Source: Oscillospiraceae bacterium (GTDB taxonomy: Bacteria; Bacillota; Clostridia; Oscillospirales; Ruminococcaceae). From it: 42,822 bases of DNA. The stretch is from the NCBI GenBank assembly GCA_017436575.1, contig JAFSCU010000030.1, positions 1 to 42,822 of the forward strand, written 5' to 3'. This document shows, piece after piece, positions 7,303 to 42,759 of the stretch. Made by a program: the position numbers and the translations under genes. The notes beneath the pieces were generated by a model. That model saw nothing but the letters and a program-made list of their open reading frames with translations. It ran no database searches and had not been told where the DNA came from. The first letter of the stretch is position 1. Every line of letters begins with the position of its first letter.

Positions 7303-10269
7303 TTACCAGTTATTGATGGTTGCCCATGTTTCGTGGCAGATATCGCAGGTATCAGTATCAGTTGGTGCATCTGTGCTGAATGTATGTGCTCCGGTGTAGC
7401 CACAGCTACATACATGTCCGTTAGGACTTACCTTGTCAGGGTCCCATATATGAGCTGCCTGATGCTGGCAGATTGTACACTGGTGATTATCACGGTCAAG
7501 GCTGCCATCCTCAGTATAAGCAACTTCCCATGTGTGTTCTGTAGAGGTGTTACATACTGTACAGATGTGAACTTCATCATCAGATTCAAAAACTGCCGCA
7601 GGCAGTGCCTGTTCAAGACCGCAAGCACATTGATGTGTTCCGTGTGTTTCAGATGTTGCTACCCAGTTATGAGGTATTTCTGTATTACACAGTGAACAGA
7701 TATGAACATTATAATCTTCCATGCCGCTGTCATCGTATTTCACCATCAGGGTGTGTTCGCCTGTATCACCACATTTTTCACATATATGTGTCAGTCCGTC
7801 TTCGCTGGCGGTATATGTATGAGCCTCTGCATAGTAACAGTCATCACAGGCATGGCCGTTGGCGTTGGCTGTCATATTATGCTGTGCGATTTCGTTACAT
7901 ACTGTACACTGGTGCTGGTCAGGGTCTGCCTCACCTGTATCGGCACTGAGAATAGGTTCCCATGTATGGCCCAGAGCATCTATTGTTTCCTGTGAAATAA
8001 TCACTTCGCCACAAACATCACAGTGACTGCCTTCAGTCAGACCTGCATCTGTACATGTAGCTGCAACTGCCTGGTCAACAACTTCTGTATGACCAAGAGC
8101 AGGAATGTCAATCGGCTGTGAAATCTGATACAGACAGTCAGAACATTCAATGTGTGGTTCTACACCATCTGTTGTACATGTAGCTGCTACCCGTTCAGCT
8201 ATTACATTTTCTGTATGTAATGCTGTGGTACCACATACTGTACAGTAATGCTGTGCAGTATCGTCAGGGTCAACCTGCCATGTGTGGTCAAGCATTGGTG
8301 TTACTTCCTGTGGAATAATCACTGTATTACATACATCACAGTGGCTGCCTTCTGTCAGACCTGTAGCTGTACATGTGGCTGCAACTGCCTGGTCAACAAC
8401 TTCTGTATGAGGCAGCATTTCGACTGTCTGCTGTGGAATAATCACTTCGCCGCAAACATCACAGTGACTGCCTTCAGTCAGACCTGTAGCTGTACATGTA
8501 GCTGCAACTGCCTGGTCAATAACCTCTGTATGAGGCAGCATTTCAACTGTCTGCTGTGGAACAATCACTTCGCCGCAAACATCACAGTGACTGCCTTCAG
8601 TCAGACCTGTAGCTGTACATGTAGCTGCAACTGCCTGGTCAACCACTTCTGTATGAGGCAGCATTTCAACTGTCTGCTGTGGAATAATCACTTCGCCGCA
8701 AACATCACAGTGACTGCCCTCTGTCAGCCCTGTAGCTGTACATGTGGCTGCAACTGCCTGGTCAACAACTTCTGTGTGGCCCAGTACTGGGATTACAGTC
8801 TGCGGTGTAAGTTCGGTGTTACATACTGTACAGATAGCACCGTCAGTCAGACCTTCTGCAGTACATGTGGCCGCATATCCCGGCACAATCTGCTCTGTAT
8901 GACCAAGTGCAGGAATAATATCCTGTGCAAGAATTGTAGTTCCACATACTGAACAGTGCATACCTTCTGTCAGGCCCGTATCTGTACATGTGGCCGCAAC
9001 AGCAGGATCCCTTTCAGAAATATGAGGAATCAGGTCTATTGTTTCCTGTGGGATAATCACTGTATTACATACATCACAGTGGCTACCCTCTGTCAGACCT
9101 GTAGTTGTACATGTGGATGCAACTGCCTGGTCAATAACTTCTGTATGAGGCAGCATTTCGACTGTCTGCTGTGGAATAATCACTTCGCCACAAACATCAC
9201 AGTGACTGCCTTCTGTCAGACCTGTGGTTGTACATGTAGGTGCAACTGCCTGGTCAATAACCTCTGTGTGAGGCAGCATTTCAACTGTCTGCTGTGGAAT
9301 AATCACTTCGCCGCAAACATCACAGTGACTGCCTTCTGTTTTACCGGCGGCAGAACATGTAGGTGCAATTGCCCGGTCGGTAATCTCTGTATGACCTGTT
9401 GCCGGTATTACCATCCTTGCTGCCAGCAGTATTCCACAGTCTGCACATTGCTGTCCGTCTGTAAGACCGGTCTGAGTACATGTCGGGGCATAACCTGCTA
9501 TTGTCGCTGCAATATGTCCTGTGGCAGGTATGGTTACAGTTTCGATTGTTTCACCGCAGTCTTCACATACTGTATGCCGGACACCGTCGGTCAGACATAC
9601 TGCTTCTGTATCGATAACCGGCCGTCCTGCTGTATGGCCTGTTGCCGGTGTTGTTTCGGTTTCCAGTATTTCGCCACAGTCGGGGCATATCAGCTGTTTT
9701 TTCTCCGGTTCTGAACAATTGCCCTCGCTTACCAATGTCCATACAGGCTCGGGGTGATTGCTCCGCGGTACCAAAAGCACTTCTACCTTCCGGTTACAGT
9801 CTGTGCATATCAGCACTTCTGTGCCGGGCTGTGTACAGCTGGACTTTTCTTCTTCTGTCCACCCGTTGAAAACATGCCGGTGAGTCTGGGGCAGTATAGG
9901 CGTGCCGTCAGGCTTTCGCAAATCACTGGCCCCCGGGTATGTAAGCCCTGTTTTTTCTGCAACAGGGCTGGTAATAATTACAGTGCCTGCTGCAATGGTA
10001 ATTGCCCGGACTTTCAGCACCCGCATTGCTTTCTGCAATATGCTTTTTCTTCCCGGTGCCCAGGACCTGTATTCGTCCATGGCTTCGGCTTCGCCCGCCT
10101 CGAATTCATCTCTGTCGGAAAGCCCTACATAGGCGTCTCGGTTGTATTCATCTTCGTGAAAAAACCTTTCCCGCCCGATTGATTCATCGTCAAGAAAAGA
10201 AAACTCGTTCTGCTCATTCAGCTCGGTGCTTTCATCATCCTGACGAAATTCGTTTTTGTCGTATAACAT
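7303..10269 (-). CDS. Giant Cys-repeat membrane-anchored protein
   Basis: 988 residues. The first 85 are very acidic and probably cytoplasmic. A hydrophobic segment follows at about 88-105, and the rest should be extracytoplasmic. The body has about 15 units with the pattern Cys-x9/10-Cys-x2-Cys, often separated by GHTE or PHTE. A 41-residue form is repeated almost exactly, best seen as four consecutive copies (DNA about 8340-8790). The C-terminal 200 residues switch to a shorter pattern of His-x-Cys-x2-Cys units. Similar repeats occur in surface proteins of Clostridia. The CxxC knuckles suggest metal or redox chemistry, or disulfide-linked stalk modules; which one is not decidable here. The start at 10269 follows AAAGGA. 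It is the first gene of the minus cluster. Confidence 0.88.
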   Translation of the reverse strand: MLYDKNEFRQDDESTELNEQNEFSFLDDESIGRERFFHEDEYNRDAYVGLSDRDEFEAGEAEAMDEYRSWAPGRKSILQKAMRVLKVRAITIAAGTVIITSPVAEKTGLTYPGASDLRKPDGTPILPQTHRHVFNGWTEEEKSSCTQPGTEVLICTDCNRKVEVLLVPRSNHPEPVWTLVSEGNCSEPEKKQLICPDCGEILETETTPATGHTAGRPVIDTEAVCLTDGVRHTVCEDCGETIETVTIPATGHIAATIAGYAPTCTQTGLTDGQQCADCGILLAARMVIPATGHTEITDRAIAPTCSAAGKTEGSHCDVCGEVIIPQQTVEMLPHTEVIDQAVAPTCTTTGLTEGSHCDVCGEVIIPQQTVEMLPHTEVIDQAVASTCTTTGLTEGSHCDVCNTVIIPQETIDLIPHISERDPAVAATCTDTGLTEGMHCSVCGTTILAQDIIPALGHTEQIVPGYAATCTAEGLTDGAICTVCNTELTPQTVIPVLGHTEVVDQAVAATCTATGLTEGSHCDVCGEVIIPQQTVEMLPHTEVVDQAVAATCTATGLTEGSHCDVCGEVIVPQQTVEMLPHTEVIDQAVAATCTATGLTEGSHCDVCGEVIIPQQTVEMLPHTEVVDQAVAATCTATGLTEGSHCDVCNTVIIPQEVTPMLDHTWQVDPDDTAQHYCTVCGTTALHTENVIAERVAATCTTDGVEPHIECSDCLYQISQPIDIPALGHTEVVDQAVAATCTDAGLTEGSHCDVCGEVIISQETIDALGHTWEPILSADTGEADPDQHQCTVCNEIAQHNMTANANGHACDDCYYAEAHTYTASEDGLTHICEKCGDTGEHTLMVKYDDSGMEDYNVHICSLCNTEIPHNWVATSETHGTHQCACGLEQALPAAVFESDDEVHICTVCNTSTEHTWEVAYTEDGSLDRDNHQCTICQHQAAHIWDPDKVSPNGHVCSCGYTGAHTFSTDAPTDTDTCDICHETWATINNW
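7900..9400 (-). repeat. Tandem 123-bp coding repeats
   Basis: Inside the Cys-repeat gene, units of about 123 bp (41 codons) recur. Copies around 8440-8790 are nearly identical in sequence, with a second near-identical group at about 9120-9345 and more diverged copies elsewhere. The third-position identity points to recent expansion or gene conversion, and copy number may vary between strains. Confidence 0.8.
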
Positions 10270-36359: not shown

Positions 36360-36435
36360 TTGAGTGTGCTGCACTGCCAAAAATATGAATACATCATAAA
36401 TATTTGTTCCGATTCAAAATTTGATAATGAAATAC

Positions 36436-36472
36436 AAACTGGCTTCTGTCAAATACAGAGGCCAGTTTTGTT
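36436..36472 (+). terminator. Terminator of the MBL hydrolase gene
   Basis: ACTGGCTTCTGT pairs with ACAGAGGCCAGT (one G-U) followed by TTTTGTT. A second weaker hairpin, CAGCTTT with AAAGGCTG and then ATTTTTA, follows at about 36482-36508. Confidence 0.8.
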
Positions 36473-36530
36473 AAAAAAACACAGCTTTTCAGCAAAGGCT
36501 GATTTTTATAATTATTATACCTGTTTTTAC

Positions 36531-36562
36531 AACTTGGTAACATTTTTATAATATGATAAAAT
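36531..36562 (+). promoter_or_regulatory. Promoter and single operator box of the paralogue operon
   Basis: The box AACTTGGTAAC (36531-36541), preceded by TTTTTAC, includes the -35 TTGGTA (36534-36539). After 17 bp comes TAAAAT (36557-36562). The response-regulator promoter at 38536-38567 has the same layout almost base for base. Confidence 0.7.
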
Positions 36563-36584
36563 ACATAAAAATCAAAATTTTTAC

Positions 36585-36628
36585 AACTTGATAACAACTT
36601 GATATAAAGTTGATAATAACTTTAGGTT
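36585..36628 (+). promoter_or_regulatory. Four tandem 11-bp operator repeats
   Basis: Consecutive 11-mers AACTTGATAAC, AACTTGATATA, AAGTTGATAAT and AACTTTAGGTT fill 36585-36628 without gaps. They are preceded by TTTTTAC as at the other sites. Head-to-tail repeats with one-helical-turn spacing are the usual binding pattern of OmpR/PhoB-type regulators. The array ends 27 nt before the first paralogue. Confidence 0.75.
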
Positions 36629-36655
36629 ACTATTAAAGCAAAGGAGGATATATTT

Positions 36656-37636
36656 ATGAAAAACAGAAAAATAATATCTCTTACAGTGCTGATAGTTGCC
36701 ATAGCGTTAATGGGCATACTGGGCTTGTCAAAAGCATTTGAAACGGCCTGGCAGAAAGAAAACACCATAGACAACAGTTTAAGTGCGGAAATGGTTGAGC
36801 GTAATCCATACTCTAATCTTGAACGGACTGATTTGGATTATCCTTTTCTGACGTTCGAAGAATTTATGGGCAAAAGCGACGAACAGGTTTATATCAGGTA
36901 CAGAGATTCTTTAGATCCGCTGTGGAAAAGCCAATTGGACTGGGCTGTTAAAAAAAGAGAGAATCAGAAATATTATTACCCCGAACCAGCTATGTTTACT
37001 TTTCAGAAAATTGCCAATAAGTGTGGTGAAATTGCAAAGTTTACTGTAGGATATACAGAGCACACAAAGCTGCCTGCAGTTATAGCGTATTATCCTGCTG
37101 ATTGTTTGGATGGTCTTGAAAGAGTAGGCGAAGGTTATGATTTTACCGGTCAGCCTTATTTTTATTATGAGTTCTTGAATGAAAGTAAAGATAAAGCCTT
37201 GCAGTTTGTTGTAAATGCTGTTACAGGTGAAATAATCACAATGTGTATCGATGGCGAAATTCTTATAGATTACATTGATGATCTTGACTATTATTATCAT
37301 CAGTCTGAACCATCAGCAGAAATATGCAAATTACTTGAAGAACAAACAAATCATATTTTAGATGTTTTAAATATAGAGGATAATATAATAAACAGGAATT
37401 ACTATTTCAGAGGTGCGTTTAAGCATGTTCTCTATAATGGCGGTTGTTACAGATACTTTGTAGAAACAGCATTTTCAAACGGTGATATAAAAACAATAGA
37501 GTTTTTGAGTGATGATAATTTGACATTCCAGCCATATCACTATTACACAAAACCAATTATACTTACAGTATCAGATGAAAGTATCATTTATAAAAATGGT
37601 AATCTGACTGATATAAATGGAAATATCGTAGATTAA
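36656..37636 (+). CDS. Membrane-anchored paralogue 1 of the two-component locus
   Basis: 326 residues. One N-terminal transmembrane segment (about 6-25) lies between a basic start and GLSKAFETAW; the rest should be extracytoplasmic. A segment FTFQKIANKCGEIAKF recalls the YxxAxxxxGE-type start of PepSY-like repeats, followed by QFVVNAVTGEIITM, which resembles the PepSY strand-turn (V-tTGe). No enzyme motif is seen. Its first 45 codons are nearly identical to those of paralogue 2. RBS AAAGGAGG. It is controlled by the operator arrays just upstream. The anchor plus outward PepSY-like domain resembles YycI and YycH, which modulate a histidine kinase; this is an analogy only. Confidence 0.8.
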   Translation: MKNRKIISLTVLIVAIALMGILGLSKAFETAWQKENTIDNSLSAEMVERNPYSNLERTDLDYPFLTFEEFMGKSDEQVYIRYRDSLDPLWKSQLDWAVKKRENQKYYYPEPAMFTFQKIANKCGEIAKFTVGYTEHTKLPAVIAYYPADCLDGLERVGEGYDFTGQPYFYYEFLNESKDKALQFVVNAVTGEIITMCIDGEILIDYIDDLDYYYHQSEPSAEICKLLEEQTNHILDVLNIEDNIINRNYYFRGAFKHVLYNGGCYRYFVETAFSNGDIKTIEFLSDDNLTFQPYHYYTKPIILTVSDESIIYKNGNLTDINGNIVD

Positions 37637-37648
37637 GGTGGTGATATT

Positions 37649-38452
37649 ATGAAAAACAGAAAAATAATATCTCTTACAGTGCTGATAGTTGCAATAGCGT
37701 TAATGGGCATATTGGGCTTGTCAAAGGCATTTGAAGCAGCCTGGCAGAAAGAAAACACCATAGACAACAGTTTAAGTGCGGAAATAGTTGATGATGCAGG
37801 CACTGTATTTGATTATCCGTATGTGAACTATACTCAGTTAAGCGATGAAGAGAAAAGATTACACGGTTGGTTTAATGATGATTTTATCATACCTGAAAAT
37901 AAGGAATTTACATATCAGCAGGCAGTAAATAAGGTTGGTGAAGCAATAAAGTACCTTACTGGATACACTGGTCATCAAAAAAGTCCAATGGTTATCGAAT
38001 TAACTAATGTAAATATGTTTTTATTGTCACGTCAATTAAGTGAAGATTGTTATAATTGCAGACAAATTGTTCCAACCGAATCAGGTGAATTGTGTATTTC
38101 AGCCATTATTGATACAACAGGTCAGTTCTGGTATATAGGATATGAAACAACAGAACACAAATTTGGTGGTAATGCTTACAAAACAGAACTTTCACAGAAT
38201 GTTTCTGAACAGTTACTCGAAACTTCCTTGCAATTTTTACAAGAAATAAATCCAACAGATAGAATTGTAGGATATGCTGCTCGAAAAGCATCATCTTCAT
38301 TGGAAGATGGTGCAGATGTGGAATATATTATTGCGCTTAAAACCGAGAACAAAAATACACTTTTATTTACTTTAAATGATGAGTATGGTCTTATTTATTT
38401 CAGCAGATATCCCGAAGAAATAGAATTGGATTACTTACCTTTACCAGAATAA
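37649..38452 (+). CDS. Membrane-anchored paralogue 2
   Basis: 267 residues, 12 nt after paralogue 1 and on the same transcript (RBS AAGGTGG). Residues 1-45 repeat the anchor of paralogue 1 with only a few changes, then the sequence diverges abruptly. The motif FTYQQAVNKVGEAIKYLTGYTGH matches FTFQKIANKCGEIAKFTVGYTEH of paralogue 1, so the outward domain is related but fast-evolving. The rest (SGELCISAIIDTTGQFWYI, and EYIIALKTENKNTLLF) keeps the strand pattern. No catalytic motif is seen. Confidence 0.8.
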   Translation: MKNRKIISLTVLIVAIALMGILGLSKAFEAAWQKENTIDNSLSAEIVDDAGTVFDYPYVNYTQLSDEEKRLHGWFNDDFIIPENKEFTYQQAVNKVGEAIKYLTGYTGHQKSPMVIELTNVNMFLLSRQLSEDCYNCRQIVPTESGELCISAIIDTTGQFWYIGYETTEHKFGGNAYKTELSQNVSEQLLETSLQFLQEINPTDRIVGYAARKASSSLEDGADVEYIIALKTENKNTLLFTLNDEYGLIYFSRYPEEIELDYLPLPE

Positions 38453-38504
38453 CTGGCACTATGGAAACAGAAAATAACTTATCCACTATTCTCATATTTT
38501 ATCA

Positions 38505-38533
38505 AACTCCCACTGTTTTCAGTGGGAGTTTTT
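38505..38533 (+). terminator. Terminator after paralogue 2
   Basis: 11-bp perfect stem AACTCCCACTG (38505-38515) with CAGTGGGAGTT (38520-38530), loop TTTT, then T to 38533. Its T run is also the start of the next operator (TTTTTACAACTTGG). Confidence 0.9.
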
Positions 38534-38535
38534 AC

Positions 38536-38567
38536 AACTTGGTAATATTTGTGTAATATGATAGAAT
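38536..38567 (+). promoter_or_regulatory. Promoter and operator box of the response-regulator operon
   Basis: AACTTGGTAAT (38536-38546) contains TTGGTA (38539-38544); after 17 bp comes TAGAAT (38562-38567). It nearly copies the promoter at 36531-36562, which suggests autoregulation. Confidence 0.7.
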
Positions 38568-38603
38568 TACAATAATATATCTGCTTTAAAAAGAGGAATA
38601 ATT

Positions 38604-39260
38604 ATGGCATACATTTTAATCGCAGAAGATGAAGAAGTTATAAACGAACTTATTGCAAAAAATCTTACAGCTGTCGGTCACAAAATTTACCAGACTTTCA
38701 CCGGCACTGAAACCCTGAAAGCTATAAATGAAAACCGGTTCGACCTGGCATTGCTGGACGTTATGATGCCCGGTATGAATGGCTTTGATGTAAAAAGACG
38801 AATAGAAAATGATACCCCCGTAATATTTGTTACGGCAAAACAGTCCCTTACAGACCAGCTGACAGGTTTGTCACTGGGGGCAGACGACTATATCACCAAA
38901 CCCTTTGATATGCTGGTACTGCTGGCAAGAATAGAAAATATTCTTCGCCGCACTATGAAAAATACCACCATATACCGAATAAACAACTGCGTTATTGATA
39001 CAGAAAGCCGCAATGTAAAAGTAAATGGTGAAGATGTGCATCTTACAACACAGGAATTCAATCTTCTTGAAGCACTGGTGATTAACCGCAATCTTGCTCT
39101 TTCCCGTGAAAAACTGATTGAACTGGCCTGGGGTTTTGATTTTATGGGGGATAACCGTACGGTTGATGTCCATATTCAGAAAATACGCAAAAAATGCAAT
39201 CTTGAAAAAGAAATTGCCACAGTTTACAAATACGGTTACCGACTGGAGTACAAAAAATGA
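38604..39260 (+). CDS. OmpR-family response regulator
   Basis: 218 residues. Receiver domain: acidic pair EDEE (8-11), phospho-acceptor Asp52 in LLDVMMPG, Thr in FVTAK and Lys in DYITKPFD. The C-terminal winged helix (about 125-218) is of OmpR/PhoB type (LTTQEFNLLEALVINRNLALSR, NRTVDVHIQKIRKK). Such proteins bind direct repeats as dimers; the 11-bp repeats before this gene and before paralogues 1 and 3 are the obvious targets. Its stop overlaps the kinase start by 4 nt. RBS AGAGGAA. Confidence 0.96.
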   Translation: MAYILIAEDEEVINELIAKNLTAVGHKIYQTFTGTETLKAINENRFDLALLDVMMPGMNGFDVKRRIENDTPVIFVTAKQSLTDQLTGLSLGADDYITKPFDMLVLLARIENILRRTMKNTTIYRINNCVIDTESRNVKVNGEDVHLTTQEFNLLEALVINRNLALSREKLIELAWGFDFMGDNRTVDVHIQKIRKKCNLEKEIATVYKYGYRLEYKK

Positions 39261-40657
39261 AATTGAACTATCGCCAGAAATTATATTTTTATATTCTGGT
39301 AATATTTTTAATCTTTTTCAATGGTGGTATATTTTCCGTTGCCGCCATTCAGAACAGTAAAAATATAAAAGCACAGCAGGAAAACCTGTTGATACAGAAC
39401 AACATAGTTCTGCAGCAGATTATTTCTGATGTGGAAGTTGTATATTCATCACGACCACAAAGCATACCGCTGATTATCAAACAGCACGGCGCAAGACAAA
39501 AAGCCAATGGCATACTTATACAGGTGGAGACCGACAGCCAGGAATACATTTATTCTTCCTTTGACAGTCAGATTTCTTTTGTAGGCAGTGACCCCACAAA
39601 AATCAATTATAAAATAGATACTGTAAATGGTGAAAAAACCTTTCTTGCTTTTTCAAAACTTCCACAGCCTTTTGACAATTACAATGTAATCACTGGTTTT
39701 TCCATGCAGGCTGTTTTTGATGACTGGCGCGATACAATCCGTGTGGTTGTGGCACTGTCGGTTATATTTTCTTCCATAATTTCCGTGGTGCTGTACATAT
39801 CTTTGAATCAGCTTACAAAACCTCTTATGGCTATCAGCAGGGCGGCATCAAAATTTGGTGAAGGCAACTATTCTGTGCGTATCAGAGAAATGTCAAAAGA
39901 TGAATTGGGCGACACAGCCAGAAACTTTAATCTGATGGCTGAAAGAATTACCAACCAGATGGATAATCTGGAGTCGATGGCAAATGACAAACAGCGTCTT
40001 ATAGATGATATTTCCCATGAAATGCGCACACCGCTGACTGCTATCCGTGGTTATGTGCATTATTTGCAGACAGCAAAATTGACCGAAGAAGAATATTACA
40101 ATACATTGAATATCATTGACCGCCAGGCAGACAGAATGCAGAAACTCAGTGAAGGCGTGCTGTCTTTCACACGCCTGAGAAATGAAAATGCAGACCGCAC
40201 AACAGTGGTAAATCTTGCAGACCTGCTGAATGATATTGCCAAAGCATATTCAATCAAAGCCCAAAGGGACAATATTTATCTGTCTGTAAAATGTCCGTCT
40301 TATCTTGAAATAAAAGGCGACAGGCTGCTGTTTGAAAGTCTTATTGGCAACCTGGTTGACAACGCCCTCAACGCCTGTGCCGATACAGCCATAAAGCGCG
40401 TGTCTGTAACTGCCCACAGCAGAGCAGATAAAACAGTGGTGCAGATTGAAGACACAGGTATAGGCATGTCAAAAGAAACACTGGAAAATATACACAAACC
40501 ATTTTTCCGTGCGGACAAATCCCGCAGCCGCCGACGTGGCGGTGCCGGCTTGGGTGCAGCACTGTGCAAAGAAATTGCCGATATGTATAATATTGATATA
40601 AAATATACATCCCGGTTGGGCAGCGGCACTACAGTTTCTTTAATTTTTACAACTTGA
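39257..40657 (+). CDS. Sensor histidine kinase
   Basis: 466 residues. Two membrane helices (about 9-31 and 162-183) bracket an outward sensor domain of about 130 residues with no named family. HAMP follows (about 184-236), then HisKA with His254 in DDISHEMRTPLTAIRGY, and HATPase with NLVDNALNACAD, DTGIGM and RRGGAGLGAALC. A complete kinase. The start overlaps the regulator gene, so the two are co-translated. The TGA stop lies inside the operator array of the next gene (TTTTTACAACTTGA). The flanking membrane-anchored paralogues are candidates to act on its sensor domain. Confidence 0.96.
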   Translation: MKLNYRQKLYFYILVIFLIFFNGGIFSVAAIQNSKNIKAQQENLLIQNNIVLQQIISDVEVVYSSRPQSIPLIIKQHGARQKANGILIQVETDSQEYIYSSFDSQISFVGSDPTKINYKIDTVNGEKTFLAFSKLPQPFDNYNVITGFSMQAVFDDWRDTIRVVVALSVIFSSIISVVLYISLNQLTKPLMAISRAASKFGEGNYSVRIREMSKDELGDTARNFNLMAERITNQMDNLESMANDKQRLIDDISHEMRTPLTAIRGYVHYLQTAKLTEEEYYNTLNIIDRQADRMQKLSEGVLSFTRLRNENADRTTVVNLADLLNDIAKAYSIKAQRDNIYLSVKCPSYLEIKGDRLLFESLIGNLVDNALNACADTAIKRVSVTAHSRADKTVVQIEDTGIGMSKETLENIHKPFFRADKSRSRRRGGAGLGAALCKEIADMYNIDIKYTSRLGSGTTVSLIFTT

Positions 40658-40704
40658 TAACAACTCTATATAAACTTGATAACATTCCGCCTTTAAAATA
40701 GAGA
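40651..40704 (+). promoter_or_regulatory. Three tandem 11-bp operator repeats before paralogue 3
   Basis: AACTTGATAAC (40651-40661), AACTCTATATA (40662-40672) and AACTTGATAAC (40673-40683) are contiguous and preceded by TTTTTAC. The last box holds TTGATA, 17 bp from TAGAGA (40699-40704), a possible weak promoter. The array overlaps the kinase stop codon. Confidence 0.7.
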
Positions 40705-40723
40705 TATAAAGGAGGATAAAACT

Positions 40724-41542
40724 ATGAAAAGCAGAAAAGTTATATATTTGACGGTACTAATAATTATAATTTTTGTACGGACTTTATTTGGCTGCTCGAA
40801 AATTATCGATGCATCTTATGAACAACCCAAAGAAATCAATAATAAATTTGTTGAGGATGTAGTTGTTTATAATTATAGGAATGCTACAGTCGACCCTGCT
40901 GATGAATATGATGACTATAATGCTCAGATGACAGCAGATCACCGAATAAACTATGAAGAAGGTATGATTTCCTATGATGAAGCGGCCAAGATTATGGGCA
41001 AAGAAATTGACTATTTCTTTCCACAGGCAAATATTGCAGATAAAGAGTTTTTGCTGGATTTAGTATCTTATGATTATATTGAAGAAGGCACACCGGAATA
41101 TCATGCTGATTATGTGAATACTGTTGATAATTATGTTTTTCAGATGGCTATAAATGCATATTCCGCGGATGTCAGGGTAATTTATCTTTCTGACAGGTCA
41201 AAAGACAGTTATGTAGCATCCGATGATCTTACTGCAGAATTGGAAACAGAACTTTTGGGCAGATGTATGCTGCTGGCCGACAGGTATGGTTACTCTGATT
41301 ATAAAGGATATTATCTGAAACAACAAAACGGAACAATGACCGGCTATTGTCTTATGCTGATACTTAATGAAACTGATGCACTGCGTTTTGAATTTGATTA
41401 TGTAAATGGACAGTTCCACCGCGAATTTTTATTTGAAAAAACAGCAATTGACCCAAGAATAGCATCAATGGACGGTGCAAAGGATATGGTTGCAGAAGCT
41501 ATTAATTCTATGAAGCCAATACCGGAATCATTTATAAATTAA
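40724..41542 (+). CDS. Membrane-anchored paralogue 3
   Basis: 272 residues. It begins like paralogues 1 and 2 (MKSRKVIYLTVLI) with one hydrophobic segment, but has LFGCSK where they have LGLSK, so it might instead be a lipoprotein with a poor lipobox. The motif ISYDEAAKIMGKEIDYF and the later GYSDYKGYYLKQ...CLMLILNETDALRFEF align with paralogue 4. RBS AAAGGAGG. It is expressed from its own operator array after the kinase gene. No catalytic motif is seen. Confidence 0.8.
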   Translation: MKSRKVIYLTVLIIIIFVRTLFGCSKIIDASYEQPKEINNKFVEDVVVYNYRNATVDPADEYDDYNAQMTADHRINYEEGMISYDEAAKIMGKEIDYFFPQANIADKEFLLDLVSYDYIEEGTPEYHADYVNTVDNYVFQMAINAYSADVRVIYLSDRSKDSYVASDDLTAELETELLGRCMLLADRYGYSDYKGYYLKQQNGTMTGYCLMLILNETDALRFEFDYVNGQFHREFLFEKTAIDPRIASMDGAKDMVAEAINSMKPIPESFIN

Positions 41543-41553
41543 GGCGGTGTTTT

Positions 41554-41727
41554 ATGAAAAACAAATCTTTACTTTACGTTGTACTGCTTAATCTTCTGCT
41601 GATTGCTTATGGCTTGTTCAGCCTTTCAATTGCGCTTGATGTGCTCTTTCCTGTACAGGAAAATCACACTCCGACAAAAGAAATAATTTTGGACAGCGGA
41701 AATAAAATAGAAATATATAATATGTAA
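41554..41727 (+). CDS. 57-residue single-pass membrane protein
   Basis: An ATG at 41554 after AAGGCGG opens 57 codons: basic MKNKS, a hydrophobic helix (about 6-28), then a short outward tail (PVQENHTPTKEIILDSGNK). It fits exactly between paralogues 3 and 4, with 11 and 16 nt gaps, and its opening recalls the paralogues' anchors, so it may be a minimal or truncated member. A small regulator of the kinase is possible but unproven. Confidence 0.65.
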   Translation: MKNKSLLYVVLLNLLLIAYGLFSLSIALDVLFPVQENHTPTKEIILDSGNKIEIYNM

Positions 41728-41743
41728 TTTAATAGGTGATGTT

Positions 41744-42544
41744 ATGAAAATTAAAAAAATTGTACCGCTCACTGCCATTGTTATAGCTGTAATGGTCATT
41801 ATGATAGTAGGCATGTCAAAATTAGTTGAAATGAACTGGCGGTCTGAAAAAGAAACAATCAATATTCTTAACGATAATTCTACAGTAAAGTATGAAATCA
41901 CAAGTTTAGGCGATTTCAAATTCACAACATGGGATGATTATCAGTCTGAAAATCCTGGTACTGCTTATTACGCAAACGGAAACCCGGAAATATACAGTGG
42001 CGAAATGCCACTGTCGTATGAAGAGGCAGCGGCCTTAGGCGGTACGGCTTTGGAAAGAATAAATAAATTTGAAGATTTCAGAAATATGAATTTTGTGCTG
42101 TATCCATCAGTGCAGAATATATACGACAAAGACTTTAATGTAATTGGTTCCACCCCGGTTTATCTTGCTTATTATTCTGAAAAAGACATTGACAAAGCAA
42201 AAAATAGTAAATCTTTTCAATATACAATTAATACTGATACTAAAAAAGTGTCTTATATACGATGGTCCATAATCACAGATGAACAGATTTTACAAATTGA
42301 CGACCCGTTGGAATATGCAAAAACCATAGCCTATGATCTGGGATATAATAATTTTAAGTCATATTATGTAGAATCTGGTGAATATAGAGGAAATGGAATG
42401 GCATACAGGGTAGACTTGTTATTGAGTGATACTGAGTCGATTTCCATAGGGTTTAATTCATATAATGATACATTCTTAATGAGGATGAATCATACAGGCA
42501 GTGACTATCATAGCAATTTAATGAAAAAAGGAATACCATTCTAA
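41744..42544 (+). CDS. Membrane-anchored paralogue 4
   Basis: 266 residues. Start MKIKKIVPLTAIVIAVMV with one membrane segment, then GMSKLVEMNW as in paralogues 1 and 2 (GLSKAFETAW). LSYEEAAALGGTALERI matches the SYDEAA motif of paralogue 3, and LGYNNFKSYYVES...YRVDLLLSDTESISIGF aligns well with its C-terminal part. QYTINTDTKKVSYI has the PepSY-like strand-turn. RBS AGGTGATG. It is the last gene of the locus; a strong terminator follows. Confidence 0.8.
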   Translation: MKIKKIVPLTAIVIAVMVIMIVGMSKLVEMNWRSEKETINILNDNSTVKYEITSLGDFKFTTWDDYQSENPGTAYYANGNPEIYSGEMPLSYEEAAALGGTALERINKFEDFRNMNFVLYPSVQNIYDKDFNVIGSTPVYLAYYSEKDIDKAKNSKSFQYTINTDTKKVSYIRWSIITDEQILQIDDPLEYAKTIAYDLGYNNFKSYYVESGEYRGNGMAYRVDLLLSDTESISIGFNSYNDTFLMRMNHTGSDYHSNLMKKGIPF

Positions 42545-42582
42545 AGTAACAGTAGTCCTGTTTGTAAAAACTGAACATAGAG

Positions 42583-42607
42583 AAAAGGTGGCGTATGCCA
42601 CCTTTTT
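42583..42607 (+). terminator. Terminator of the two-component locus
   Basis: AAAAGGTGGC (42583-42592) pairs with GCCACCTTTT (42597-42606), loop GTAT, T run 42603-42607. Confidence 0.92.
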
Positions 42608-42637: not shown

Positions 42638-42666
42638 TTGACAATTGGCCGGTAGAGGTATATAAT
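42638..42666 (+). promoter_or_regulatory. Consensus promoter, upstream of the tandem pair
   Basis: TTGACA (42638-42643), exactly 17 bp, TATAAT (42661-42666): a perfect sigma-A consensus pointing out of the window. No credible gene starts before the window end. Confidence 0.85.
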
Positions 42667-42731
42667 ACAGGAACGCTCGAATGGGCGTACACATTGAAGA
42701 AAGAAAAAGTCAAAGGAAAATAAAAAAGTAC

Positions 42732-42759
42732 TTGACAAACTGGAAAAATGTGGTATACT
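42732..42759 (+). promoter_or_regulatory. Strong promoter, downstream of the tandem pair
   Basis: TTGACA (42732-42737), 16 bp, TATACT (42754-42759), 94 bp after the first promoter and preceded by an A-rich stretch like an UP element. Tandem near-consensus promoters are typical of rRNA operons in Firmicutes; the target gene lies outside the window. Confidence 0.75.

What the first reader, a model, noticed from the sequence alone, without database searches (positions are those of the whole stretch)
36531..42607. Candidate new signalling module: two-component system embedded in a family of anchored paralogues
An OmpR-type regulator and a complete kinase are flanked by four paralogues (326, 267, 272 and 266 aa) and one 57-aa membrane peptide. 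All have one N-terminal membrane anchor and, in the four larger ones, an outward domain with weak PepSY-like strand-turns and a shared (F/S)(T/Y)xxA...G motif. Enzyme motifs are absent. The layout recalls YycH/YycI acting on WalK, but with several diverging copies under the regulator's own control. I infer a feedback system in which alternative anchored modulators tune one kinase.
Basis: partly seen in the sequence, partly recalled or inferred. Interest (0 to 1): 0.8.

Follow-up and report, generated by a model that had tools for sequence, protein, structure and literature searches.

The report
Self-controlled sensor with swappable PepSY proteins
A gut bacterium carries a sensor-regulator pair that appears to switch on mainly itself and a family of membrane-anchored proteins; these look like partners of the sensor, their anchored ends kept alike within a genome while their outer domains diverge.

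Summary

(1) Control: an operator-like element with 11-bp repeats lies before RR, before p326 and at the HK stop codon before p272. Exact core matches in the 2.1-Mb genome number six: four here, two before a second copy cluster. A related element lies at the HK 3' end in 22 of 38 loci read outside the genus, so the wiring looks old. (2) Anchors: the first 44 residues are homogenised within a genome (p326/p267 98%) while outer parts diverge (19%); quartet tests give opposite trees.

RR and HK stay 89% identical between two congeners, the paralogues 41-66%.

Best reading: an autoregulated TCS whose anchored products feed back on the kinase. Main rival: the anchored proteins are the output. PepSY-TCS modules are known (DbfQRS, BqsPQRS, YycI-WalK); this is an expanded variant. 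RR binding, contact with the kinase and function are untested.

The parts
36523..36562 (+). operator-like site 1 before p326 (core 36526-36540), followed by a -10-like element
   Evidence: 90% over 40 bp to 38528-38567; alignments A9, A10; exact core
36576..36616 (+). operator-like site 2 before p326 (core 36580-36594), 11-bp repeats
   Evidence: 93% over 41 bp to 40642-40682; alignment A11
36656..37636 (+). p326, anchored paralogue; its outer part is closest to G009_c (60%)
37649..38452 (+). p267, anchored tandem PepSY paralogue (AF2 pLDDT 76.2, pTM 0.69)
38504..38531 (+). terminator-like hairpin after p267 whose T-run runs into the RR site
   Evidence: -19.7 kcal/mol, z -6.8
38528..38567 (+). 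operator-like site 1 before RR (core 38531-38545)
38604..39260 (+). OmpR-family response regulator, 218 aa
   Evidence: PF00072 9.8e-25, PF00486 1.7e-21
39257..40657 (+). sensor histidine kinase, 466 aa (HAMP, HisKA, HATPase_c; outer domain between two hydrophobic segments)
40642..40682 (+). operator-like site 2 overlapping the HK stop codon (core 40646-40660), 11-bp repeats
40724..41542 (+). p272, anchored paralogue; 66% to its G015 counterpart
41554..41727 (+). p57, one-helix peptide with 60-aa counterparts in G001 and G015; tail GNKxExYx
   Evidence: pN 0.38-0.39 against pS 0.70-0.73
41744..42544 (+). p266, anchored tandem PepSY paralogue (AF2 pLDDT 75.1, pTM 0.71)

Best explanation
A self-contained, autoregulated two-component system whose regulator switches on its own operon and a set of membrane-anchored tandem PepSY proteins (plus a small one-helix peptide), which feed back on the kinase. 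Shown by sequence: the gene set, the fold of two members, the conserved repeats before RR, p326 and p272, their near-absence elsewhere in the genome, and a related element at related kinases in other genera and families. Inferred: that the RR binds the repeats (11-bp pitch, which I recall as usual for OmpR-family regulators), that it activates, and that the anchored proteins act on the kinase. I infer that the conserved anchor and membrane-proximal stretch is the common plug that meets the conserved kinase, and that the fast-changing outer domains read or bind different things outside. The sign of the feedback is not known; YycH/YycI inhibit WalK in Bacillus subtilis and activate it in Staphylococcus aureus (PMC8399564, passages). 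The confidence below is for the feedback function; I hold the anatomy and the autoregulation at about 0.85.
Against: No interaction was computed or measured. A regulon limited to the module suits an effector role as well as a feedback role. The RR-site link is by position and pattern only. 'An anchored gene directly downstream' is a weak test: 33 of 38 related loci pass my loose hydropathy rule, but so do 7 of 17 other HATPase genes of the own genome. Nine loci with an uncut, non-overlapping HK lack an HK-end site in the scanned window (L116, L121-L123, L125, L132, L136, L140, L142). In G004/G014 the divergence contrast is slight (HK 76%, G004_d/G014_c 70%). One of 17 paralogue pairs in other lineages (L110) has a less conserved anchor. 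In lipoprotein lineages (L111-L114) the conserved stretch includes a signal peptide that should be cleaved, so helix-helix contact cannot be general. Foldseek, run for p266 only, gave no match at E <= 0.001. One genus member (G015:C5) has no TCS beside it and no site in the ~95 bp before it.
Confidence: 0.5

Rival explanations
1. The anchored proteins are the output, not modulators: the kinase senses an envelope threat with its own outer domain and induces BLIP/PepSY-like surface inhibitors (of hydrolases, proteases or antimicrobials), which diversify in an arms race.
For: The exact operator core is confined to the module, so the paralogues and the TCS are its only visible targets. Outer domains change fast while the kinase is conserved. 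PepSY and BLIP folds are proposed to act as inhibitors by binding a partner (PMC4282423, passages).
Against: Homogenised anchors and the recurrent operator at the kinase's own 3' end suggest a tie to the kinase itself; a PepSY protein beside another TCS acts on its kinase (PMC12714742, passages).
Confidence: 0.33
2. TseB/CopD-like partners of a penicillin-binding protein: the paralogues regulate the class B PBP beside some copies.
For: A class B PBP (PF00905 1.5e-54 and 4.1e-50 in the two tested) lies next to copies in G000:C6 and G001, and its counterpart in G015:C5. It too diverges (69-71%) beside a conserved alaS (96% between G000 and G001). CopD has one TM and two PepSY domains and meets PBPs through TM and cytoplasmic parts (PMC10653890, passages).
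Against: The PBP is found in 15 of 16 genus genomes, including 8 of the 9 without the module; sigK lies directly before it in 11 of the 15 loci, so the paralogues seem to have landed at an existing site. A terminator-like hairpin lies before the PBP in G000.
Confidence: 0.1
3. Neutral local amplification: tandem duplicates kept by recombination, with the adjacent TCS regulating something else.
For: Two to six full members per genome among the seven carriers; paralogues are AT-richer (33-35% GC against 40-41% for RR and HK).
Against: Intact frames, and dN/dS of 0.09-0.24 for the four paralogue pairs where it could be computed, though dS is 1.5-2.3 and near saturation; operator conservation.
Confidence: 0.05

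Closest known systems
DbfQRS of Vibrio cholerae and BqsPQRS of Pseudomonas aeruginosa (PepSY protein beside a TCS)
   Same: PepSY extracytoplasmic protein encoded beside an RR and HK; PepSY-TCS neighbourhoods reported >60-fold over chance; two PepSY proteins in P. aeruginosa (PMC12714742, passages)
   Different: DbfQ is a single-domain secreted protein encoded upstream, in a Gram-negative; here membrane-anchored tandem PepSY, up to six copies, homogenised anchors and a small one-helix peptide, in Bacillota
YycH/YycI with WalRK
   Same: Anchored outer proteins encoded with the TCS and acting on the kinase (PMC8399564, passages); YycI is called a PepSY protein in PMC4282423 (passages)
   Different: No Pfam match to YycH/YycI and scores far under the WalK and YycF cut-offs; no PAS domain in HK by Pfam; several paralogues; operator-like site at the HK end
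YpeB C-terminal domain (5boi)
   Different: YpeB partners SleB in spore germination (PMC4282423, passages); whether a SleB-like gene lies near was not searched
TseB/YpmB and CopD
   Same: One TM helix and two PepSY domains; CopD meets its partners by TM and cytoplasmic parts (PMC10653890, passages)
MgrB (for p57)
   Same: Short membrane peptide of a TCS regulon; MgrB represses the PhoQ/PhoP system (PMC2789325, abstract)
   Different: No sequence link shown; action of p57 unknown

Membership tests
PepSY domain (fold) | one helix packed on four antiparallel strands | tested here: met
   two such units in each of two AF2 models of moderate confidence; best matches PepSY proteins
PepSY Pfam PF03413 | score over the gathering cut-off (24 bits) | tested here: not met
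   best 21.6 bits in a G004 member, 13.9 in p326; 5 of 25 members at E <= 0.1
YycH / YycI | match to their Pfam families | tested here: not met
   neither family is listed up to E 10 for the four paralogues
YycH / YycI | structural match to their solved outer domains | tested here: inconclusive
   not among the rows, which is no evidence against
WalRK | NCBIfam equivalog cut-offs (HK_WalK 725 bits, YycF 340 bits) | tested here: not met
   182 and 160 bits
WalRK-YycHI-like layout | anchored outer proteins encoded next to RR-HK | tested here: met
DbfQRS-like PepSY-TCS module | PepSY protein within four genes of HK/RR | tested here: met
   (by fold; by the Pfam cut-off it would be missed)
DbfQRS-like PepSY-TCS module | direct contact with the kinase sensor domain | not testable with these tools
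   no complex prediction on hand
OmpR/PhoB-type regulator | receiver plus Trans_reg_C | tested here: met
TseB/YpmB, CopD | sequence family match | tested here: inconclusive
   no such family listed by Pfam or NCBIfam for the four paralogues, but no dedicated comparison was made
MgrB | sequence family match | tested here: inconclusive
   no Pfam or NCBIfam hit for p57 up to E 10; no direct comparison with MgrB

The most novel reading that the evidence does not exclude
One conserved kinase serves as a socket for an evolving set of plug-in sensors: recombination keeps the anchors alike within a genome so that every copy fits the kinase, while outer domains diverge to read different signals. An operator-plus-anchor cassette can be copied to new loci, and the regulator controls chiefly this set, giving a nearly closed circuit that can gain or lose inputs without changing the kinase.
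Probability: 0.25. Interest if true: 0.85.

Novelty: new variant of a known kind. Interest (0 to 1): 0.62.

Why it matters
What most sensor kinases detect is unknown. If anchored PepSY proteins are exchangeable inputs to one kinase, the range of signals can evolve without touching the kinase. The operator-like element found at related kinases across the order would let the regulon be read from DNA alone, also where the downstream proteins look unrelated, and gives a test set for accessory-protein control of kinases in little-studied gut Bacillota.

Tried and rejected
PBP partnership as the main reading: set back after searches showed the PBP in 15 of 16 genus genomes, 8 of them without the module, mostly right behind sigK. 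Homology of the order-level downstream proteins (A8) with the PepSY family: hhalign 35%, anchor region only, so not claimed. PDB search with the HK sensor part (A6): first row PCNA (E 7e-4, no stretch passing on its own), then many LC3 chains, taken as chance. PDB search with A7: nothing convincing. Foldseek without realignment, p266 only: nothing at E <= 0.001. YycH/YycI are absent from the VIA-align lists, which says nothing either way.

Operator pattern in the genus: the degenerate pattern has 22 matches in 16 genomes against 5 for the reversed control. Outside module clusters lie G011, G012, G006:C59 and G009:C2, which look unrelated; G014:C16:24907 and G006:C155:3406, which precede a small membrane protein and lipoprotein pairs; and G002:C40, which has two 11-bp repeats and lies 263 bp before an anchored 324-aa ORF although G002 (85% complete) shows neither HK nor paralogues; G002 is unresolved. 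Sites 1 and 2 back to back as a deletion scar of RR-HK: both p326 and C6 p277 carry them 54 bp apart, which fits copying of one cassette; the order of events is open.

Limits of the locus survey: the 38 loci (L048, L108-L144) are all 18 places outside the genus and 20 of the 29 places outside the own genome; nine, mostly weaker, were not fetched. They come from 31 genomes and are not independent (several congeners, and up to four loci of one genome). Gene starts were picked by a simple rule; L116, L117 and L125 are doubtful. The hydropathy threshold (best 17-residue mean of at least 1.6) was applied by me to the printed values. G006_b (395 aa) was left out of A2. The PSSM was trained on 18 genus sites; the 22 of 38 are all outside the genus. 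Part of the HK-end motif codes for the kinase's last residues (FTT or FTS), which could conserve it for another reason; against this, the six kinases that overlap the next gene end otherwise and some sites lie outside coding sequence (L109, L119).

Literature: a search on PepSY with gene conversion and paralogues and one on TCS, lipoprotein and Faecalibacterium gave nothing fitting in their listings, of which only the top rows were shown.
Full report
What is there. The window is one whole contig (C28, 42,822 bases) of a 2.1-Mb, 54-contig genome (length). A congener (G015) has a 10,047-base contig of the same length as JAFZGF010000042.1, a water-buffalo rectum MAG titled Oscillospiraceae, and the family members read at mirrored places in both, so the source is a gut Bacillota. 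The finding's ORFs are all present. RR and HK are complete by Pfam. The four outer proteins get no Pfam or NCBIfam assignment over a cut-off.

Distribution. The 25-row profile matches 8 of 16 genus genomes, with 26 full-length members in 7; G002 has only a partial match, to a lipoprotein beside another TCS. 21 of the 26 lie in a cluster with RR-HK (window 4, G001 2, G004 4, G009 3, G014 3, G015 5); two lie on contig C6 of the window's genome, two at a contig edge in G006, one alone in G015:C5. The kinase sensor part is found in 6 of 16 genomes, the six just named as holding clusters with a TCS; 9 genomes have neither kinase nor full-length paralogue. In a sample of 297 family genomes the profile adds six outside the genus, weakly (E 2e-8 to 2e-4); the best is G206, where RR (61% identical) and HK are followed by three proteins of 638-702 aa that share the N-terminal part.

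The kinase is more widespread than the paralogue family. With the sensor part as query, 21 of 396 family genomes (11 of 126 genera, the own genus counted) and 16 of 295 in an order sample (9 of 149 genera) have a relative. I read 38 loci outside the genus: all 18 such places of the family search and 20 of 29 of the order search, from 31 genomes, several of them congeners. RR relatives upstream are 48-61% identical to the window's in the rows printed. By a loose hydropathy rule the gene directly downstream of HK is N-terminally anchored in 33 of 38, after I discounted a sigma factor (L123) that passed; L116 and L125 among the 33 are doubtful gene calls. Of the other five, L108 ends at the HK, L117 is doubtful, and L121-L123 carry an anchored protein just before RR instead, that of L121 matching the family profile (E 5e-7), the other two similar by eye. 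The rule is weak: 7 of 17 other HATPase genes of the window's genome (17 of the 18 others, not all of them sensor kinases) pass it as well. Weight therefore rests on homology and on the operator. The downstream proteins of family-level loci are homologous to the window's paralogues (15-row profile, hhalign 97%, E 5e-11); 13 order-level ones are not shown to be (35%, anchor only). None of the ten tested has a Pfam family over the cut-off.

Operator. Comparing intergenic regions showed that one 40-bp element lies before both RR and p326, and another 41-bp element both at the HK stop and before p326. Alignments with up to six genomes give site 1, TTTACAACTTGGTAATAT followed by a -10-like element, and site 2, repeats of about ACAACTTGATA at 11-bp pitch. 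The shared core TTTACAACTTGRTAA occurs exactly six times in the genome: before p326 (two), RR, p272, and before the first paralogue on C6 (two); the reversed pattern gives none, and one mismatch adds one further place. In the window, shuffles average 0.41 hits at two mismatches against five found, one of which is off the module. With a PSSM from 18 genus sites, 22 of 38 outside loci have a site of at least 12 bits within -45 to +30 of the HK stop, 10 of 38 have one before RR, and 17 hits lie elsewhere in 937,398 nt (both strands); of these 17, those of L121-L123 at about -1.8 kb lie before the moved gene and that of L125 lies at -49. Control loci of the own genome give 8 in 287,570 nt. The six loci where HK overlaps the next gene (L048, L110, L134, L138, L141, L144) have no HK-end site and their kinases end in other residues; nine others with an uncut, non-overlapping HK also lack one in that window. 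L129 and L143 show four repeats at 11-bp pitch by eye.

Transcription units. A terminator-like hairpin follows p267, its T-run merging with the RR site, so p326-p267 is probably one unit and RR-HK another, with a further start before p272. In G014 and G006 sites also precede pairs of a small membrane protein and a lipoprotein, so the regulon is wider there.

Anchors and outer domains. For p326 and p267 the first 132 bases are 96.2% identical (41 of 44 third positions), then similarity collapses; G009_b and G009_c show the same (96.2%, 42 of 44). Yet outside the anchor p326 is closest to G009_c (60%). Quartet resampling gives 1000 of 1000 for the within-genome pairing in the anchor and 1000 of 1000 for the cross-genome pairing in the rest. 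Over all pairs of 26 members, within-genome anchors average 42.3% against 32.3% between genomes; outer parts do not differ (17.2 and 17.4%). In eight tandem sets of other genera the first 45 residues are more alike than the rest in 16 of 17 pairs, L110 being the exception and one L048 pair nearly equal (42 and 40%). This fits gene conversion or selection for a common anchor; I cannot separate them.

Constraint. Between G000 and G015, RR and HK are 89% identical, the sensor part 91%, p272 66%, p267/p271 43%, p266/p268 41%, p57 40%. Between G000 and G009, RR and HK 83% and p326 59%. Between G004 and G014 the gap is small (HK 76%, RR 78%, G004_d/G014_c 70%). dS is near saturation for many pairs, so ratios are rough.

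Small peptides. p57 has 60-aa counterparts in G001 and G015; a profile of the three finds no further full-length match in the loci scanned, only weak likeness to the paralogues' anchors (E 0.008 for p267). In G004 and G014 a different 42-aa one-helix ORF follows the HK. Their role is unknown; MgrB is an analogy only.

Mechanism and rivals. The strongest shown facts are the operator-like sites confined to the module and the clustering of the paralogues with this kinase. Feedback on the kinase is the reading I prefer, on the precedent of DbfQ (passages of PMC12714742) and YycH/YycI (passages of PMC8399564), and because anchors, not outer domains, are kept alike, as would suit a shared partner in the membrane; CopD contacts its partners through TM and cytoplasmic parts (passages of PMC10653890). 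The rival that the proteins are the output is nearly as good.

Novelty. PepSY-TCS neighbourhoods are published, so the kind is known. I saw no paper on this TCS lineage, its HK-end site or anchor homogenisation in the listings, which search an open-licence library only and show top rows.

On recounting I lowered the weight of the downstream-gene statistic (own-genome control 7 of 17), told the nine loci without an HK-end site, and marked G002 as unresolved.

Noticed in passing
L024:10062-11482 (G000:C6 end): A large serine recombinase lies next to the 3' part of sigK: a skin-like element appears to interrupt sigK in the window's genome. In G005 and G008 the sigK match before the PBP also begins only at residue 108, close to a contig end.
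   Followed up: partly
L187-L201 (PBP loci of 15 genus genomes): sigK lies directly before a class B PBP in 11 of 15 loci, and alaS after it is seen in 12 of 15. Paralogues precede the PBP in G000, G001 and G015; in G001 sigK is not in view.
   Followed up: yes
L054:5548-6615, L055:5451-6407, L056:3518-4507: A separate lipoprotein with two or three PepSY-like stretches by the family profile sits beside a kinase of another TCS in G002, G014 and G006.
   Followed up: no
L026:8114-8242 (+), L029:5766-5894 (-): A 42-aa one-helix ORF directly after the HK in G004 and G014, alike in both.
   Followed up: no
L029:9064-9097 and L183: Operator-like sites before pairs of a ~105-aa membrane protein and a lipoprotein in G014: a wider regulon in that species.
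   Followed up: partly
L167 (G002:C40:4849-4865): An operator-like site with two 11-bp repeats, 263 bp before an anchored 324-aa ORF, in a genome where neither HK nor paralogues were found.
   Followed up: no
42638-42759: Two strong sigma-70-like promoters (12 and 11 of 12) in tandem at the contig end, perhaps the start of an rRNA operon where assembly broke.
   Followed up: no
7303-10269 (-): A 988-aa ORF of many near-identical cysteine-rich repeats.
   Followed up: no
L048:7710-13763: The three G206 proteins (638-702 aa) share the anchor and first part with the family but carry a long extra C-terminal part of unknown fold.
   Followed up: no
36360-42544: The module is AT-richer than the window (35.7 against 41% GC); paralogues 33-35%, RR and HK 40-41%.
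   Followed up: no
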